A stretch of 42,241 nt of DNA from a virus. Made by a program: the position numbers and the translations under genes. Position 1 is the stretch's first letter; every line of letters begins with the position of its first letter. Positions 1-42,241 of this stretch are shown here, piece by piece. The notes beneath the pieces are model-generated. The model did no database searches. It was not told the DNA's origin and saw only the letters and a program-made list of their open reading frames with translations. The stretch spans positions 1-42,241 of IMG/VR virus record IMGVR_UViG_3300042904_000455, one strand, 5' to 3'.

Positions 1-106
1 ACTTGGCGTGCGTCTTGGGCGCATGAATGAGTTTACACCAAAGTTAAAGTTTTGGGGTAAGAGTCGTTTTGTGGTTGGCAATGCGCAAATGCAGGTAAGG
101 CAATAG
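1..106 (+). CDS. 3' end of gp10-like head-tail protein (duplicate of 42115-42220)
   Basis: The reading frame open from base 1 to the TAG at 104-106 is the last part of the gene that is complete at 40589-42220. It is repeated only because the window ends overlap, so it is not a second gene. Confidence 0.95.
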   Translation, partial: LGVRLGRMNEFTPKLKFWGKSRFVVGNAQMQVRQ

Positions 107-127
107 GAGGAGATTATGGCAAATATT
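1..127. repeat. Terminal direct repeat, left copy
   Basis: Bases 1-127 are identical to 42115-42241. The repeat holds the end of the gp10-like gene, a ribosome site and the first codons of the next gene, so it is ordinary coding sequence seen twice. A length of exactly 127 equals a k-mer size widely used by short-read assemblers, which suggests an assembly overlap of a circular or circularly permuted genome rather than a physical terminal repeat. Confidence 0.95.
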
Positions 128-19516: not shown

Positions 19517-19770
19517 CCTCTCAACTCCTTAATCTTCTCAATCAGCTTCCTTCTAGACTCAAGATGCGCCTCTCCACGCGCCCTCATCTCATCGCTGCCT
19601 TGAGCAGCACAGAGCCACCAAGCTTTAGACGATAAATCATCAACCAGACTTATTATATCGTCATTCTCTACATCATTAGCACTTTCTATCAAGTAGTCTT
19701 TGTGAGCCTCTGAAATACCCATCATATCCATTAAATCAATTCTTGCTTGTAATTCTTTATGCATTATCAT
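19513..19770 (-). CDS. Hypothetical early protein coupled to csrA
   Basis: 85 residues, all helical and charged, with ATGA overlaps at both ends (to csrA upstream and YopX downstream). The middle contains KAWWLCAAQGSDEMRARGEAH. No family recognised. Confidence 0.6.
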   Translation of the reverse strand: MIMHKELQARIDLMDMMGISEAHKDYLIESANDVENDDIISLVDDLSSKAWWLCAAQGSDEMRARGEAHLESRRKLIEKIKELRG

Positions 19771-19955
19771 TTCTTATCTCTTTGCTTATCTTCCCAAATT
19801 TCCCGTCTATCAACCCCTATTTCCTTGGGCGCCTCGACCTCCAATCTGACAAGGCCATTCTTGTCAACGCTCTTGACTGTAACCTCTACGTTGTCATCTA
19901 TGATGATAGACTCGCCGCAGTATCTTCCTAAAACTAAGCGCCCTTTTTCTTGCAT
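19767..19955 (-). CDS. csrA: CsrA-family RNA-binding regulator
   Basis: 62 residues with a clear ribosome site (AGGAG). After a 5-residue N-terminal extension comes the CsrA fold: LVLGRYCGESIIID (Arg11 corresponds to E. coli Arg6), then VEVTVKSVDKNGLVRLEVEA, then PKEIGVDRREIWE (Arg50 corresponds to the RNA-contacting Arg44). CsrA dimers bind ANGGA motifs in RNA hairpins, often over ribosome sites, and change translation and stability. Both key Arg residues are kept, so RNA binding is likely. It could act on host mRNAs or on the phage's own ACGGA-containing leaders. Phage-encoded copies are uncommon. Confidence 0.9.
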   Translation of the reverse strand: MQEKGRLVLGRYCGESIIIDDNVEVTVKSVDKNGLVRLEVEAPKEIGVDRREIWEDKQRDKK

Positions 19956-20960: not shown

Positions 20961-21112
20961 CTTTCATCTCCGTTGTTGCAAATGGTTTGTACTTTACACG
21001 TTTCTTGCGAAACATGCGCTTCCCGCTCTTGCGAAGCAGCATGCTGCACCACAAAAAAAATAGGAATAAGAAAAGGTAATGCCAACAAAATGCTTTTTAA
21101 CATAAACTTCAT
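20957..21112 (-). CDS. Membrane microprotein
   Basis: 51 residues: hydrophobic segment at about 5-23 (LKSILLALPFLIPIFFVV), then a polar tail with two Cys (positions 39 and 45) that would lie outside the cytoplasm. Start set by CGGAG within the repeated AACAACGGAGAT leader; stop overlaps the ATPase start. One of a run of membrane microproteins in this operon. Function unknown. Confidence 0.6.
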   Translation of the reverse strand: MKFMLKSILLALPFLIPIFFVVQHAASQEREAHVSQETCKVQTICNNGDER

Positions 21113-21131
21113 CTCCGTTGTTAAAATAAAC

Positions 21132-21329
21132 TTAAAACCAAATTTTCACCAAGGCAGTTATTCCTAACAGCAAAACAACTATCGCAAAAAACAAGCCACT
21201 TAGCGCCGCAAAAACCTCAGCGCCCTTGTCGCAGTCATTTGCTTCACACAAGACATACGCAATGCTGCTTGCAAGAAATGCCACCGTAAAAGTAAGGCAG
21301 AACTTTAAAATAATAATCATAGAACCCAT
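21132..21329 (-). CDS. Two-segment membrane microprotein, paralogue A
   Basis: 65 residues from the ATG at 21329, placed by the AACAACGGAGAT leader; the longer frame lacks a ribosome site and overlaps the next gene. Two membrane segments at about 5-26 and 38-62, with an acidic loop containing CEANDCDKGAE. It resembles the next protein in loop position, spacing and the last residues (IWF), so the two look like an old tandem duplication. Holin-like in size, but in the early operon. Confidence 0.6.
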   Translation of the reverse strand: MGSMIIILKFCLTFTVAFLASSIAYVLCEANDCDKGAEVFAALSGLFFAIVVLLLGITALVKIWF

Positions 21330-21349
21330 CTCCGTTGTTAAACAATAAT

Positions 21350-22288: not shown

Positions 22289-22317
22289 AGTATAACCCAT
22301 GATTTCATAGATGTCAA
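22289..22317 (-). promoter_or_regulatory. Early promoter with operator half-site, - strand
   Basis: Read on the - strand: TTGACA (22312-22317), a 17-base spacer, TATACT (22289-22294). The spacer contains TGAAATCAT (22299-22307), the same half-site found in three other promoters here. It drives the long early operon and lies back to back with the + strand Cro-like promoter. Confidence 0.85.
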
Positions 22318-22351
22318 GCAAATTTATAAAAAATATTGCATTTATGCTTTA

Positions 22352-22405: not shown

Positions 22406-22648
22406 TTGGCGAAAAATTATCGGAATGATACGCGGGTACCTGGCGCTACAGAAGAAGAGCGTCAATGGCTGAATGAGCTACATTTGAACGGCAGGCAACT
22501 AGCAAGAGACATAGGCATATCCCACACTACATACCATAAGTTTAAGCGGGGGGAGCCTACAGCAGAGTGGATAAGAGAAGCGATTATGAAAGTTGCACAC
22601 AGAAAACACCAAAAGTTGGAGGAATTAAAAGCAATAGCGAAGGATTGA
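22406..22648 (+). CDS. Cro-like helix-turn-helix regulator
   Basis: 80 residues, starting at TTG after AGAGGCAAGAAG. A helix-turn-helix at about 30-55 is visible (RQLARDIGISHTTYHKFKRG), followed by a helical tail. It lies directly behind the divergent promoter and upstream of the replication gene, the usual place of Cro or CII. Together with the XRE protein at 36488 it probably forms a genetic switch. The TTG start would limit its level. Confidence 0.75.
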   Translation: MAKNYRNDTRVPGATEEERQWLNELHLNGRQLARDIGISHTTYHKFKRGEPTAEWIREAIMKVAHRKHQKLEELKAIAKD

Positions 22649-22757
22649 TTACTTTGAGAAAAGTCCTACAACAAAGTAGTTGAACTTGCTTTTTTTGCGA
22701 ATTGGTTTATCGTATTATGCGCGCCTTAATACAGCCTTAATAAACCAAGGACGAAAT

Positions 22758-24185
22758 ATGCAGACAAATCCTCTACTGTGGGTCAACAACGAAAAGCTAT
22801 ACGATTTAGTTTCTATTGTTGGCAGTATAGACCTCGCTGTTTTTTATGCCCAAATAAAATTTCAGGTAAGCGATAGTCGAATAGTGAAATATGGTAAAAG
22901 ATACCGTATTAAGCGACGGGTAGAAAAAGAAGATGAGCGGGTAATTGCTAGAAGTAGGAAGCAGTTATCTCTATATAATGGCAAAGGCATAACAGCCACT
23001 ATGGAAGATACCGCTGAGCTAGCAAAGCTAGGCCTGATTACAAAAAGAGTGAGCACGTGGAAGGGGAAAAAACGTATGTTTATATCATGCCCAGAAGATT
23101 ATGATCTGGGAATCAACGTTCATAAATTAGAAATTCTTAACAAATATACGGGCGGCTTAGCTCAAAGCGCTTTGCTAGCCTACTTTGCTTATTGGATAGA
23201 AGTTAATCCATTTAAAGGCGAATATAAGGATTGGGCGATGGTAGCCAGAAGGCGCGCCGCTAAGATGCTCGGAGTAGAGGGTAAGACTTGCGATAAGTAC
23301 GTTAAAGAGCTAGTGGAGCGCGGGTTAATAGAGTGCAAGGGTGCCAAAAGATGGGGGCAGAGACAATACGAAGTAAAAATAAACAAAGATTTTTACGATA
23401 AGATTGTAGCCGAGTGGAAAGAAAGGGTTGAGCAGCTAGCCGAAGAAAGAGCTGAAAATTTGGCCAAACGGGAAAAATCCGACTTATCCATAAGAACTAA
23501 TAACTCTCCTAAGGTAGATATTAAAAATAATAATACTATAACTAGTTTAGTTAGCATCAATACACCGCTAGTCGACGAAGGAGGTAATGTTATTTTGTCA
23601 AAAAGACAACAAAACTATCTTGCTGAGGCTATAAAGCGCACATTGGCTCGATGTGACGTTTTAACCTGGAGCGCCACCACCCTAATGGGCCACATGAGAT
23701 ATGTGCTTGGCACGCCTAAAAACCGTGAAAGCGGCCAAGGTTTCGCGCATATTATTAACCGAGCGATGTTTTTGGTGAGGAAGGGCTTGTGGCAACAGCC
23801 ATTTGGGTATTTATATTACAGCGAGGAGGGGAAAAAGATGCAAGAAGCGCTGTTGCCTGTGAATCCGGCTAGCAAATGCGTTGTGCCTGGGGTTGGTACC
23901 ATCATGATGTGGGATTATAGTTCGGGAGTTGACCGTGCCGACAAGGTTCCGTCTATCGTGGAGATTATGGGCGAAAGAAAGCGGTTAGAAGACTTGGGTT
24001 TGTCGATGGAAGAGGTCAATAAAAGCTTGTTGGCTAAGTTTGACCATCATGGTAAACCGTTTTTGCTTAAGGAGGCTGTCATGTCGGGGTGCGCGAAGGG
24101 GCGCCAGGTAAAGTTAGACGACGAGGAGTGGGGAGAGCTAGCAAAAACAGATCCAGTTATACGAAGAGCGTTAGAGGGGGAATAA
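22758..24185 (+). CDS. Probable replication initiation protein
   Basis: 475 residues from the ATG at 22758 (AAGGACG ribosome site); an upstream TTG is less likely. The first part (about 1-215) looks like two winged-helix domains, ending in a helix-turn-helix-type stretch RAAKMLGVEGKTCDKYVKEL (about 165-184) and a wing with RGLIECKGAKRWGQRQYEV. A polar linker rich in Asn follows, then a C-terminal domain. Position next to the Cro-like gene matches lambda O or plasmid Rep genes, and no polymerase or helicase is seen elsewhere, so host replication is likely recruited. Family not confirmed. Confidence 0.6.
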   Translation: MQTNPLLWVNNEKLYDLVSIVGSIDLAVFYAQIKFQVSDSRIVKYGKRYRIKRRVEKEDERVIARSRKQLSLYNGKGITATMEDTAELAKLGLITKRVSTWKGKKRMFISCPEDYDLGINVHKLEILNKYTGGLAQSALLAYFAYWIEVNPFKGEYKDWAMVARRRAAKMLGVEGKTCDKYVKELVERGLIECKGAKRWGQRQYEVKINKDFYDKIVAEWKERVEQLAEERAENLAKREKSDLSIRTNNSPKVDIKNNNTITSLVSINTPLVDEGGNVILSKRQQNYLAEAIKRTLARCDVLTWSATTLMGHMRYVLGTPKNRESGQGFAHIINRAMFLVRKGLWQQPFGYLYYSEEGKKMQEALLPVNPASKCVVPGVGTIMMWDYSSGVDRADKVPSIVEIMGERKRLEDLGLSMEEVNKSLLAKFDHHGKPFLLKEAVMSGCAKGRQVKLDDEEWGELAKTDPVIRRALEGE

Positions 24186-24186
24186 C

Positions 24187-24384
24187 ATGTACGAGAAAGA
24201 CGAGGATGAGGGTAACGTAGGGTTTCAGTTTAAGATGGCGAAAGAGTGCAGCAATTCTTATGATATGTCTATTTGCGATAAGTGCGGCAATAAATCCACA
24301 GATGGGGAAATAACATTTTGCCATACAGATAAAGGTTTTGTTTACCAGTCTATATGCAGAGTATGCAGAGGATGCGATGACTAA
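24187..24384 (+). CDS. Small zinc-binding protein
   Basis: 65 residues, one base after the replication gene. Cys pairs CDKC (about 30-33), FC..., and CRVCRGC near the end indicate zinc binding. Acidic N-terminus. First of four small Cys-rich proteins that follow the replication gene. Function unknown. Confidence 0.65.
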   Translation: MYEKDEDEGNVGFQFKMAKECSNSYDMSICDKCGNKSTDGEITFCHTDKGFVYQSICRVCRGCDD

Positions 24385-24399
24385 GTTGTTGGGGAAGGT

Positions 24400-24633
24400 A
24401 TGAGTCTTTACCGTGAATTTTTAAGGGATGGGGCGTGCAATTATTGCGCATTAGAGAACCGCATCGCCAAAAGCTTGATGGATCAAGGGATTGACCCTAT
24501 GGGCATTGGCGGCCTTTGTAGTGAATGTTACGGGAAATTTAAAAATGTTTTTCGAAAGCTGCACGCTGAGGGAATGGCGCAAGCATTTTGCCATAAAGTA
24601 AACAAATTATTGGGGCTAGGTGATGGGCTATGA
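24400..24633 (+). CDS. Small Cys-rich protein
   Basis: 77 residues. CNYC (13-16) and CSEC (40-43) form a probable zinc ribbon, followed by a basic helical tail. GGGGAAGG ribosome site. Function unknown. Confidence 0.65.
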   Translation: MSLYREFLRDGACNYCALENRIAKSLMDQGIDPMGIGGLCSECYGKFKNVFRKLHAEGMAQAFCHKVNKLLGLGDGL

Positions 24634-24677
24634 AGACGATTACGCAATGCCAGGGTTATCGCGGAGGCGCTGAGTAG

Positions 24678-24872
24678 GTGAAAACTGAATCGCACCAAGG
24701 ATTTTGGATATGTCAAAATTGCAAAAATGGAGAGATGGTGCTCTGTCAGCAGAAATTAAGCTACCCGCCCATAAATGTTTATAGGTGCGATAGATGTTAC
24801 GCATTTTTTGAGGTTAGACAGGCTGATAATAAATTTTCCGTCACAGAGGGGTGGGTAGAAATTGAAAACTGA
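24678..24872 (+). CDS. Small zinc-ribbon protein
   Basis: 64 residues, GTG start. CQNC (12-15) and CDRC (37-40) give a classical two-knuckle ribbon; the surrounding strands are aromatic. Overlaps the next gene by 11 bases. Function unknown. Confidence 0.6.
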   Translation: MKTESHQGFWICQNCKNGEMVLCQQKLSYPPINVYRCDRCYAFFEVRQADNKFSVTEGWVEIEN

Positions 24873-25017
24873 AGAAATATTGAATGAAGGAGTATATGAA
24901 TTTAAATCGCAATTTTCACAAACGCTATTACCATCACCAGGTGATAAGGTTAAATTAACGCCAGAGCAGCAATTAGCATTATTAGAATTTCAGTCTTTTA
25001 TACAGGGGCAGTCATGA
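24862..25017 (+). CDS. Small protein with TTG start
   Basis: 51 residues. TTG at 24862 behind GAGGGGTGGG; the reading frame ends in an ATGA overlap with the next gene and overlaps the previous one by 11 bases, a spacing typical of this genome. Amphipathic helices, with no Cys. Function unknown. Confidence 0.45.
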   Translation: MKTEEILNEGVYEFKSQFSQTLLPSPGDKVKLTPEQQLALLEFQSFIQGQS

Positions 25018-25697
25018 GTACAGAGAAGATATTATCGGAAAGGGAAAAGACGCACGGGGATTTTGAGGGCGTTTCAGAATTGGCGCAAGAACTAAAGGAC
25101 GCGGCATATATTTTGGGGAAAAATAAACTAGACGGTGGTCAACAAATAGCTTTAGATATGATTTTTCTTAAAATTGCGCGCATCATGTGGGGAGACCCCA
25201 ACCATGCAGACCATTGGGATGATATAGCAGGCTATGCGATGCTGGGGAAGGGAGAGAATGAAAGTAGAATGGACAAAGCGGATAGGATAATTAATGATGC
25301 TCTGCATCAGCTGGGATACCCTTGCAGGAATTGTGGTGAACAAAAAGCGCAAGAGGGTATGGAGGTTATTTTTCCAGAGGCCAGCTATTATGTTTGTAAA
25401 GCATGTGCGCCAGAGGTTAGATCGAGAACGCCAGGCGCTAATGAGCAGGATAAAAATAGCACAAGTTCCAAAATGGAACATATGGAGCGAGAGACCAGGA
25501 TTACTGCTTTTCACGGTTGCCGCAAATGTAATAAATATTACAAGGCAGAGGATATGCATCAGACAAGATGCCTGAAAGATGGGTGTGAAAGGTATTGCGC
25601 TATTTGCATAAAATGCCATAAAGAAGAATGTGATGAGACAAAGAAATGTAATAAATGCGCTCAATATGATTATGAGCAGCAAATGAGAATGAGATAG
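25014..25697 (+). CDS. DUF6378-like domain fused to Cys-rich zinc region
   Basis: 227 residues. Residues 1-80 follow the phage DUF6378 pattern: ILSEREKTHGDFEGVSELAQ, LDMIFLKIARI, and GDPNHADHWDDIAGYA. Then come C..C at about 103-106 and CKAC at 129-132, a linker, and a second Cys-rich end with CRKC, CAICIKCHKEEC and CNKC (about 165-218). At least three zinc sites are possible. Usual DUF6378 proteins are short and lack this tail, so the fusion is notable. Function unknown. Confidence 0.7.
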   Translation: MSTEKILSEREKTHGDFEGVSELAQELKDAAYILGKNKLDGGQQIALDMIFLKIARIMWGDPNHADHWDDIAGYAMLGKGENESRMDKADRIINDALHQLGYPCRNCGEQKAQEGMEVIFPEASYYVCKACAPEVRSRTPGANEQDKNSTSSKMEHMERETRITAFHGCRKCNKYYKAEDMHQTRCLKDGCERYCAICIKCHKEECDETKKCNKCAQYDYEQQMRMR

Positions 25698-25705
25698 ATG
25701 CGCTC

Positions 25706-25734
25706 TTGCTCTACCCCAGAAGATTAGCTATAAT
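25706..25734 (+). promoter_or_regulatory. Sigma-70 promoter of the small-RNA unit
   Basis: TTGCTC (25706-25711), 17-base spacer, TATAAT (25729-25734). The predicted start at about 25741 is the first base of a structured RNA that ends at an intrinsic terminator. Located 9 bases after the preceding stop codon. Confidence 0.75.
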
Positions 25735-25794
25735 ATCCCCTCATCTCCGGTTATGGAATTAATTACGGTTAATGCATATCCGTAATTGCTGGAG

Positions 25795-25881
25795 ATGAAC
25801 CGATTACCTTCGCTAGCCCGCCTCATCCATATGGTAGCGGGCACTAGGCGTTATTCGCCGAAGCCTGTAGAGATGCTATAG
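25795..25881 (+). CDS. Possible 28-residue peptide inside the small RNA
   Basis: ATG at 25795, stop TAG within the terminator stem; product begins MNRLPSLARLIHMV and is basic. GGAG abuts the ATG with no spacing and is paired in the hairpin, so translation would be poor unless the leader opens. A chance ORF of this length is common, so this is tentative. Confidence 0.2.
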   Translation: MNRLPSLARLIHMVAGTRRYSPKPVEML

Positions 25882-25890
25882 GCTTTTTTT
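25861..25890 (+). terminator. Intrinsic terminator of the small RNA
   Basis: AAGCCTGTAG pairs with CTATAGGCTT (10 bp with one G-U), loop AGATG, then a T-run through 25890. Strong on the + strand only; it also separates this unit from the convergent - strand operon. Confidence 0.9.
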
Positions 25891-26111: not shown

Positions 26112-26487
26112 GAACTTCCCCGCATGAGCATGGCTCACTCTTGTCTGTATTGCTCTTTTTAATTATGTCGCCATGCCTTAGTGAGGTGTAACTCGTACCC
26201 TTAACTGCTTTAACTTTCCCAGCGTACTCATCACATGATAAAGACATCATCTTACCTAACCTTTTTACTTGAAACTCGTTAGGGAACCCATGCTCATCTA
26301 GAACCGACAAATCCTTTTCGTCAGCTAAAGCATGGTACATTTGCGCTGTCCTGTACTTTAAAGCGCTCAACACCAGCATTTGGCGAGAAAAGATAATATC
26401 AAATAGCGGGTTATCGTTCAAACTGTTTTGAATTGATGTCACCATTGCAAAAGATTCCAGCAAGTAGTCTCGTAGCTCTCTATCCAT
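26104..26487 (-). CDS. Hypothetical early protein
   Basis: 127 residues, mostly helical, ending in a CSCGEVHD tail that could bind metal. Overlaps both neighbours by 8 bases. No family recognised. Confidence 0.65.
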   Translation of the reverse strand: MDRELRDYLLESFAMVTSIQNSLNDNPLFDIIFSRQMLVLSALKYRTAQMYHALADEKDLSVLDEHGFPNEFQVKRLGKMMSLSCDEYAGKVKAVKGTSYTSLRHGDIIKKSNTDKSEPCSCGEVHD

Positions 26488-26854
26488 TCTGTTTCCCCTT
26501 TTTTATTAAACGCTTTTTCATTAACGTATCAATAGTCTCACTTACGCTATCCTTTGATTTTGCTAGCTCAGCCAGATTCAGAGTGCCGAGCGAATTATTT
26601 GGTACTTTAAACTCTTTCTTGCCATCTTTCTCGCCTTTGCGTACCACAGAATTATAGCAATCAACCTGTACAAGCTCTTGCAATAGCTCTATGCATTGAT
26701 TGATACCATCTGAGAACATGCACCCGTCTAACGCAATTTCGTAGTATATTCCTTTTGGCGATTCCGTGACTACTACTTCAAACTCAGCCTTAGTTTTTGG
26801 GTCTTGAACTTTATATATCTCAACTGTTTTTGTTAGATATTTTAACTTAATCAT
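26480..26854 (-). CDS. Hypothetical early protein
   Basis: 124 residues. N-terminal half beta-rich (VEIYKVQDPKTKAEFEVVVT); C-terminal half charged and helical, ending very basic (KKRLIKKGKQ). Possible nucleic-acid binding from charge only. Overlaps the gene downstream by 8 bases. Confidence 0.65.
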   Translation of the reverse strand: MIKLKYLTKTVEIYKVQDPKTKAEFEVVVTESPKGIYYEIALDGCMFSDGINQCIELLQELVQVDCYNSVVRKGEKDGKKEFKVPNNSLGTLNLAELAKSKDSVSETIDTLMKKRLIKKGKQNG

Positions 26855-28389: not shown

Positions 28390-28440
28390 CTCTCAATCTC
28401 CGTTGTTGTTTCTACATAAGCCCTATTGCTTATAGTTGTA

Positions 28441-28469
28441 ATGATAGCTGATCATTTCCAAAGTGTCAA
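28441..28469 (-). promoter_or_regulatory. Second early promoter, - strand, with operator half-site
   Basis: TTGACA (28464-28469), 17-base spacer, TATCAT (28441-28446) on the - strand. The spacer holds GAAATGAT (complement of 28451-28458) at the same place as GAAATCAT in the first early promoter, which points to joint control. Confidence 0.85.
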
Positions 28470-28621
28470 GCATAAAGTGAAAGAAAAGCGAAAATAATTG
28501 TAAATATTTTTAGAAAGGTGAGTTTATTCGTACAAAGTTTAGCTATGGGTTAAATCTTGTACAAATTGTAATTGCTTTAGTTTATGCTCAATCAAACAAA
28601 CCACTTTGTAGGGTAATTATT

Positions 28622-40589: not shown

Positions 40590-42220
40590 TGCCAGAGCAG
40601 AATGTCCCCGTACAAATTGTAGGCTCATCGAAATTTGGTGTTTATAACAAGATAAATGCGCGCAAAACATACAATATGTTTGAGTCAGATGGATGGTTAG
40701 TGCCTTATGCTGGCTGGAAAAAAGTATTAACGCTTATCAGTGAATCCACGTCAGACATCAGTGGCCGAGGTTTATTTTGGAGTATCAGGGGCAGGATTGG
40801 TGTTGCCGTTATCAACTCCGGCGTTTGGCATTTAGATACGGTAGTAGGGGCTAGATTTATAGGCAACATAGCCACTTTTAGCGGCCCTGTATTTATGGAT
40901 GAGAACCTAAACTCGCAGATAGCCATTGTAGACCAACTCAACATCTATATCTATAACCGCGCAACCAATGCGCTTATTAAGCAAGAAAGCTTCACCAATG
41001 GCGGAACGGTGCCCGATGATTTAACGCCTAATTACGTGTGCTTCCACGATAACTATTTCTTGGTGGGTAATGGCAATTTTACAGGTAATGGCTCGCGCTT
41101 TTATGCCTTCCGGTACACCGATGCTGACACTATATCGGTTGCCACCGGCGGTCAATTGGCCTTACAGACTAAGCCAGATTATGCCAAGGCTATCGTGCGC
41201 TTATCTGAGAAAGGTGAAAACGTTCTGGTTTTTGGAACTGCAGTGACGGAAATACAAAGCAACTCGCCGATTGTTCAGGACGGCAATATATTGCTCTACC
41301 AAAGAAACCCAACGGTGAATATCGATTATGGCGTGCTAAGCGTTGCCACAATTGCCTTTTCCGATAATTTTGTGGTGTGGCTAGGCTCAAATGAAAAGTC
41401 ACCCCCAGTCATCATGCTGTTTAATGGCTCGCAGGCAAAGACCATTTCCACCGATGGTATCAATGCGCTTTTGCAAAGGCTAGAGCATCCAGAGGATTCC
41501 TTTGGTTTTATATACAAACAAGATGGCCATGTGTTTTACCAGCTTACGTTCAACAAGGATAACGTTTCTTTGTTATTGGACTTTAACAACGAAGCATTTT
41601 ATAACGTCAGTGATTACAACTTAAATTATCACCCTGCAAGGCAGGTAGTTTACTCTGGCAGTAAGTGCTATTTCGTGTCCATTAATGATGGCAGTGTTTA
41701 CGAGATAAGTACCACCTATACCACCTATGACGATAACACGCGTAGGCCTGGGCATCCCTTATACGATGAAGCGCAGAACCATGTTATCCCCCGTCAAGTT
41801 ATTGGCGATACATTCCGCATGGCTGGCACAAAACCATTTGTGATTGACAACTTTTATCTCACTATGGAGCAGGGGGAAGATAAAGCGTGGACGCAATATA
41901 CACGCGATGATTCTGGCGAGGGCATTATCACGGAGGATGATATCGCGATGGTTTCAGAAGATGACCAGCAGCTTGTTACTGATAATGGCGCCATCAACAC
42001 GCTTTCGTATCAACCAAAAGTATCTTTTTCTTTTTCGCCCGATGGTGGAACGACTTACAGCAATGAGGTTGAAACCGTTATTAATTTTGTAGGTTACAGA
42101 CAAAACATAGCGCAACTTGGCGTGCGTCTTGGGCGCATGAATGAGTTTACACCAAAGTTAAAGTTTTGGGGTAAGAGTCGTTTTGTGGTTGGCAATGCGC
42201 AAATGCAGGTAAGGCAATAG
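40589..42220 (+). CDS. gp10-like DNA stabilisation (tail hub) protein
   Basis: 543 residues. Begins MPEQNVPVQIVGSSKFGVY; the repeated NxYxxNARKTYNMFESDGW-like opening and the beta-propeller-like body (GRGLFWSIRGRIG, IAIVDQLNIYIYN) match P22 gp10-type packaged-DNA stabilisation proteins, which plug the portal together with gp4 and gp26. Start is at 40589 in a TAATG overlap; earlier in-frame ATG at 40577 is inside the previous gene. Ends in the terminal overlap. Confidence 0.85.
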   Translation: MPEQNVPVQIVGSSKFGVYNKINARKTYNMFESDGWLVPYAGWKKVLTLISESTSDISGRGLFWSIRGRIGVAVINSGVWHLDTVVGARFIGNIATFSGPVFMDENLNSQIAIVDQLNIYIYNRATNALIKQESFTNGGTVPDDLTPNYVCFHDNYFLVGNGNFTGNGSRFYAFRYTDADTISVATGGQLALQTKPDYAKAIVRLSEKGENVLVFGTAVTEIQSNSPIVQDGNILLYQRNPTVNIDYGVLSVATIAFSDNFVVWLGSNEKSPPVIMLFNGSQAKTISTDGINALLQRLEHPEDSFGFIYKQDGHVFYQLTFNKDNVSLLLDFNNEAFYNVSDYNLNYHPARQVVYSGSKCYFVSINDGSVYEISTTYTTYDDNTRRPGHPLYDEAQNHVIPRQVIGDTFRMAGTKPFVIDNFYLTMEQGEDKAWTQYTRDDSGEGIITEDDIAMVSEDDQQLVTDNGAINTLSYQPKVSFSFSPDGGTTYSNEVETVINFVGYRQNIAQLGVRLGRMNEFTPKLKFWGKSRFVVGNAQMQVRQ

Positions 42221-42241
42221 GAGGAGATTATGGCAAATATT
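42115..42241. repeat. Terminal direct repeat, right copy
   Basis: Exact copy of bases 1-127. Joining the ends here gives a 42,114 bp circle in which the gp10-like gene is followed directly by the small gene that starts at base 116. Confidence 0.95.

What the first reader, a model, noticed from the sequence alone, without database searches (positions are those of the whole stretch)
25741..25890. Small RNA whose predicted 5' end is complementary to the shared early leaders
A self-contained unit (promoter 25706-25734, intrinsic terminator 25861-25890) makes an RNA predicted to begin UCAUCUCCG, the exact complement of CGGAGAUGA in four of the five early leaders (the fifth, before 28389, shares CGGAGAU). 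The same 5' end is paired in a hairpin, so opening it could expose an anti-SD. The RNA also has GGA sites that might sponge CsrA. This combination of a phage small RNA, repeated targets and a phage CsrA is not one I know as described.
Basis: inference. Interest (0 to 1): 0.8.

Follow-up and report, generated by a model that had tools for sequence, protein, structure and literature searches.

The report
Conserved structured phage small-RNA gene
This bacterial virus carries a short, highly folded non-coding RNA gene with its own start and stop signals; its core is preserved in a distant relative, but the part proposed to jam early-gene translation is folded shut and missing in that relative.

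Summary
The unit is real. A sigma70-like promoter (25706-25734) and a strong intrinsic terminator (25860-25890) frame a 150-nt RNA that folds far better than shuffles (z = -5.2). One syntenic relative was found (IMGVR_UViG_3300034355_000787 = L003/G001; orthologues mostly 22-57% identical). It has the same unit between the same two genes: a promoter with the same 17-nt spacer, the identical unpaired box UUACCUUCGCUA, hairpin 2 with loop UCCAUAU, near-identical hairpin 3, and terminator. All 23 core pairs are kept in both, six by two-sided compensatory changes. So this is a lineage-specific phage RNA family with no Rfam match.

CGGAGATGA is in three, not four, of the five RBSs; all five share AACAACGGAGAT. 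The 5' anti-SD sits inside an 11+8-bp hairpin: opening costs 12.6 kcal/mol, leaving about -1.5 to +0.9 net. The relative lacks that hairpin arm and the RBS motif. The RNA has only two GGAs, neither in a hairpin loop and neither conserved, so a CsrA sponge is not supported.

Best reading: a trans-acting phage small RNA working through its conserved unpaired boxes, targets unknown (probably host). New member of a known kind.

The parts
25706..25734 (+). sigma70-like promoter, TTGCTC-17-TATAAT, 9 nt after the stop codon of the upstream gene
   Evidence: the relative has TTGCTT-17-TATAGT 4 nt after the stop of the orthologous gene (L003 5382-5410)
25741..25798 (+). hairpin 1: outer stem UCAUCUCCGGU/GCUGGAGAUGA and 8-bp inner stem; carries the anti-SD-like 5' end; window-specific in sequence
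   Evidence: L003 has an unrelated 7-bp hairpin here
25804..25815 (+). conserved, mostly unpaired box UUACCUUCGCUA (12/12 identical in the relative)
25816..25842 (+). hairpin 2: covarying stem (4 of 8 pairs with two-sided changes), conserved loop UCCAUAU at 25826-25832
25847..25859 (+). hairpin 3: GGCG-(A)UUAUU-CGCC, near-identical in the relative
25860..25890 (+). intrinsic terminator: 11-bp stem, 5-nt loop, U7 tail; two compensatory pairs
25014..25697 (+). upstream gene: DUF6378 domain plus a Cys-rich C-terminus; orthologue in the same place in L003
25893..28389 (-). convergent leftward early operon ending at the RNA's terminator; 26480-26854 has its orthologue next to the RNA in L003
22258..22270 (-). 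proposed target: first RBS of the leftward early operon (AACAACGGAGATGA)
   Evidence: net pairing about -0.8 kcal/mol
20966..21334 (-). proposed targets: three internal RBSs (20972, 21117, 21334) of the same operon
28390..28402 (-). proposed target: first RBS of the second leftward operon; only CGGAGAT matches
19767..19955 (-). phage csrA
   Evidence: L003 also carries CsrA

Best explanation
The window encodes an independently transcribed, non-coding, structured phage RNA (about 148-150 nt), made from a sigma70-type promoter just behind the DUF6378 gene and ended by its own intrinsic terminator. Shown by sequence comparison: the + strand, the three core hairpins, the conserved unpaired box UUACCUUCGCUA, the conserved loop UCCAUAU, and conservation of the unit's position. 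Inferred: that it is expressed, and that it works in trans by base pairing, with the unpaired box (which contains an ACCUU anti-SD-like stretch) and/or loop 2 as the seed, most likely on a host RNA. Stem sequences drift with compensation while the exposed single strands stay fixed, which fits a pairing or protein-contact surface. Hairpin 1, with the anti-SD-like 5' end, is a variable 5' module, perhaps protecting the RNA from decay. I put about 0.85 on a real conserved RNA unit and about 0.45 on the trans-acting base-pairing function.
For: Fold z = -5.2 in the window and -5.5 in the relative. Syntenic relative with a matching promoter, box, hairpins and terminator. DNA similarity of the core has E 2.4e-6 against the early region; it is one of only two clearly non-coding stretches conserved there. 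All 23 pairs are kept in both, 6 with two-sided changes; 7/500 shuffles do as well, and slid controls reach 33-50% paired against 100%. All 23 pairs form on the + strand but only 20 on the - strand in each sequence because of G-U pairs. No shared reading frame (what the sequence shows). Model R1 finds both members at E below 1e-24 and no other viral locus tried.
Against: Only two members, so covariation is two-sequence evidence. The 12-nt box and loop 2 show no enrichment of complementarity at RBSs of either phage, and no common phage target was found, so the target is unidentified. The promoter's -35 is weak. No expression data. The host is unknown.
Confidence: 0.45

Rival explanations
1. One reading: the 5' UCAUCUCCG acts as an anti-SD and represses (or competes at) the five early RBSs that share AACAACGGAGAU, with hairpin 1 as an on/off switch.
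For: The 9-nt match to three RBSs, 8 and 7 nt to the others; duplexes of -13 to -16 kcal/mol; the five best RBS duplexes beat 300/300 shuffles of the 9-mer. The relative lacks both the RNA element and the RBS motif, as a co-evolved pair would.
Against: Opening the 5' end costs 12.6 kcal/mol, net -1.5 to +0.9. The element is absent from the relative while the rest of the RNA is kept. CGGAGAUGA resembles an extended SD and UCAUCUCC resembles the 16S 3' end UCACCUCC (general knowledge), so the match may reflect ordinary SD complementarity. The shared AACAA of the motif is mostly outside the pairing.
Confidence: 0.12
2. It is the 3' untranslated region and terminator of the rightward early operon (22406-25697), separating it from the convergent leftward operon; any free RNA would be a processing product.
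For: It lies directly behind the last rightward gene and ends at the convergent operon in both phages. The weak -35 makes the separate promoter uncertain.
Against: A bare terminator would not need the invariant 12-nt box, loop 2 and hairpin 3, nor a promoter kept at the same place with the same spacer.
Confidence: 0.18
3. A late-transcription leader like the lambda pR'/6S unit: a short terminated RNA that an antiterminator extends into the late genes.
For: Position behind the rightward operon, promoter then terminator within about 150 nt, late genes further on the same strand.
Against: No Q-type antiterminator family among the window proteins (PHROGs list cut at 25 families). A 2.5-kb opposing operon lies between it and the terminase. 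In the relative the terminase genes have their own TTGACA-17-TAAACT promoter.
Confidence: 0.08
4. A protein-binding or decoy RNA (CsrA, Hfq or an unknown phage or host protein) whose conserved single strands are protein contacts.
For: Both phages encode CsrA; the conserved exposed segments have no phage RBS partner.
Against: For CsrA: two GGAs in the window RNA, neither in a hairpin loop; three in the relative, at other places.
Confidence: 0.12

Closest known systems
C4 antisense RNA of phages P1/P7/P22 (Rfam RF01695)
   Same: A small phage RNA proposed or shown to pair near a phage mRNA's ribosome-binding site (PMC12197685)
   Different: No Rfam match here even at E <= 5; no ant/icd-like target operon; here the candidate pairing stretch is closed in a stem; separate promoter
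Intrinsically terminated trans-acting sRNAs of (pro)phages, e.g. AsxR, IpeX, DicF (reviewed in PMC12197685; DicF from general knowledge)
   Same: Compact phage-encoded RNA, stem-loops, intrinsic terminator, no reading frame
   Different: Sequence and structure unrelated by Rfam; the phage shows no integrase among its families (PHROGs list cut at 25 families); target unknown
CsrB/RsmY-type CsrA sponges
   Same: CsrA is encoded by the same phage
   Different: These carry many loop-exposed GGAs; this RNA has two, neither in a hairpin loop, none conserved
Lambda 6S/pR' late leader
   Same: Promoter plus terminator behind the rightward operon
   Different: No Q family found; opposing operon downstream; relative's terminase has its own promoter

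Membership tests
Phage trans-acting small RNA with intrinsic terminator | Own promoter | tested here: inconclusive
   9/12 sigma70 match, perfect -10, same spacer and place in the relative; no 5' end data
Phage trans-acting small RNA with intrinsic terminator | Intrinsic terminator with U tail | tested here: met
   11-bp stem plus U7; covarying in the relative
Phage trans-acting small RNA with intrinsic terminator | Conserved RNA structure, no conserved reading frame | tested here: met
   23/23 pairs kept, 6 compensatory; reading frames compared by eye do not match
Phage trans-acting small RNA with intrinsic terminator | Defined RNA target paired by an accessible seed | tested here: inconclusive
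   No common phage target; no RBS enrichment for the conserved boxes; host unknown
Phage trans-acting small RNA with intrinsic terminator | Expression; Hfq or ProQ binding | not testable with these tools
   Needs RNA-seq or co-precipitation
C4 antisense RNA (RF01695) | Match to the covariance model | tested here: not met
   No match at gathering score or E <= 5
CsrA sponge (CsrB/RsmY type) | Several GGA motifs exposed in hairpin loops | tested here: not met
   Two GGAs, one in a bulge, one paired; not conserved
Lambda 6S/pR' late leader | Adjacent Q antiterminator gene | tested here: not met
   Upstream protein is DUF6378; no Q family in the Pfam proteome scan

The most novel reading that the evidence does not exclude
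A phage small RNA whose 5' end mimics the ribosome's anti-SD, kept shut by its own SD-like arm, and which when opened represses a set of early genes that share one RBS motif, AACAACGGAGAU, gained together with the RNA element in this lineage only.
Probability: 0.1. Interest if true: 0.75.

Novelty: new member of a known kind. Interest (0 to 1): 0.42.

Why it matters
It defines a new phage RNA family: two circular podovirus-like genomes whose proteins have largely diverged (mostly 22-57% identity) keep one structured RNA in one place, so the RNA is probably under selection. The invariant 12-nt box and loop 2 give two short, directly mutable elements for target finding. If the window-specific 5' anti-SD also works, it would be a one-to-many translational switch tied to a shared RBS motif.

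Tried and rejected
Rfam on the window, the unit and part of the relative: nothing at gathering score in window or relative; only a sub-threshold trpB hit (E 3.6) in the relative. DNA similarity in phages and plasmids: none significant. Hairpin 1 as a widespread element: 39 viral pattern hits, by inspection chance matches mostly in coding-like sequence. Further relatives through portal, Sak4-like protein, 26480-26854 family, replication protein and terminator pattern: only the same contig or nothing. Model R1 in up to about 770 gammaproteobacterial/Pseudomonadota genome draws: best 27-27.5 bits, about one expected by chance at that number of genomes; two hits were in a chromosomal, non-phage setting and two were not opened. 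Conserved phage target: none shared; some window-only predictions rest on an approximate accessibility score and I do not rely on them. Origin of replication: no iterons, GC skew simply follows gene direction. Small ORFs (28 aa window, 19 aa relative) are in different frames and not conserved.

Full report
WHAT IS THERE. The window is a 42,241-base IMG/VR virus record with identical 127-base ends, so probably a circular contig. It encodes a P22-like portal, terminase, SSB, RtcB, CsrA and Lar; no integrase family was seen (the PHROGs list was cut at 25 families). Rightward genes 22406-25697 end with a DUF6378 gene. Leftward genes 28389-25893 converge on it. Between them lies the unit: TTGCTC-17-TATAAT (25706-25734), four stem-loops, and an intrinsic terminator ending in T7. 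The folded RNA has -59.2 kcal/mol, z = -5.2, with 0 of 200 shuffles as stable.

CGGAGATGA is whole in three of the five sites, CGGAGATG in one and CGGAGAT in one. All five share AACAACGGAGAT. Four of the five are in one operon and three are internal RBSs. Shared 9-mers of this sort have complements about 0.09 times per 150 nt, while the match beats 300/300 shuffles of its own letters. So it is unlikely to be pure composition, but it was selected after the fact from many features.

THE RELATIVE. A search with the DUF6378 protein found IMGVR_UViG_3300034355_000787 (L003), a 42,522-base contig also with 127-base end repeats. Orthologues are mostly 22-57% identical, and the early region shares gene order: csrA, recombination gene, small HTH-type gene, replication gene, DUF6378 gene, RNA, leftward operon, terminase side. 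Behind its DUF6378 gene lies TTGCTT-17-TATAGT, then UUACCUUCGCUA (12/12), hairpin 2 with UCCAUAU in the loop, UAGGCGAUUAUUCGCCG and a terminator. The core hit has E 2.4e-6; the only other clearly non-coding stretch conserved in the early region is the 5' leader of the leftward operon.

RNA-LEVEL SELECTION. The 23 core pairs form in both sequences. Six have changes on both sides: four in hairpin 2 and two in the terminator. Sliding the partners drops pairing from 100% to 33-50%. Only 20 of 23 pairs would form on the opposite strand, because of G-U pairs. Two sequences are few, but the pattern is that of a + strand RNA.

WHAT THE RELATIVE SAYS ABOUT THE ANTI-SD. It has no TCATCTCC/GGAGATGA hairpin; its 5' module is a 7-bp hairpin. 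It has no GGAGATGA anywhere and CGGAGAT at no RBS. The anti-SD is thus not what defines this RNA. Since both sides are absent together, a window-specific pair remains possible.

ENERGETICS. Freeing the 5' nine bases costs 12.6 kcal/mol (8.0 for a start at 25743 with seven bases). Duplexes are worth -13.3 to -16.3. Including target opening, the net is -1.5, -0.2, +0.9, -0.8 and +0.8. Without a helper protein or co-transcriptional pairing this is marginal.

CsrA. The phage CsrA is genuine, but the RNA offers one bulged and one paired GGA, neither conserved. The RBS motif itself (ACGGA) could be a CsrA site; this is inference and untested.

MECHANISM. I favour a trans-acting small RNA using the exposed box and/or loop 2, target probably in the host, because neither element is enriched for complementarity at the phages' own RBSs. 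Shown: unit, strand, structure, conservation. Inferred: expression, pairing, target class.

COMPARISON. It works like known phage sRNAs (C4, AsxR, IpeX; review PMC12197685). It is not a member of C4 by the Rfam test, nor a CsrA sponge, nor a lambda-type late leader by the features tested. Novelty: a new family of a known kind.

Noticed in passing
L003 3821-4977: An IS110/IS116-family transposase-like ORF is followed directly by a 37-nt tandem array (9.6 copies) of two short motifs, ATGAGAAACCA and TGCGAGCCA, separated by variable stretches of about 8 nt; not seen at the corresponding place in the window.
   Followed up: partly
window 28406-28434; L003 7068-7096: The 5' leader of the leftward operon keeps a small stem-loop (ATAAGCAATNGGGCTTAT) in both phages, just after a TTGACA promoter.
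   Followed up: partly
window 22292-22320 and 28444-28472: The two leftward early promoters share a 29-nt stretch (72% identical), a possible common operator.
   Followed up: no
window RBSs at 20972, 21117, 21334, 22270, 28402: Twelve identical bases AACAACGGAGAT at five RBSs, longer than an SD needs; perhaps a CsrA or other regulator site.
   Followed up: partly
window 22621-22700: A terminator-like fold (AAAAGCAA...TTGCTTTTTTT) between the HTH gene and the replication gene contains TAGCGAAGG, complementary over 9 nt to the RNA's conserved box; not found upstream of the relative's replication gene.
   Followed up: partly
window 1-127 and 42115-42241: Identical 127-base ends, also in the relative: probably circular contigs with an assembler overlap.
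   Followed up: yes
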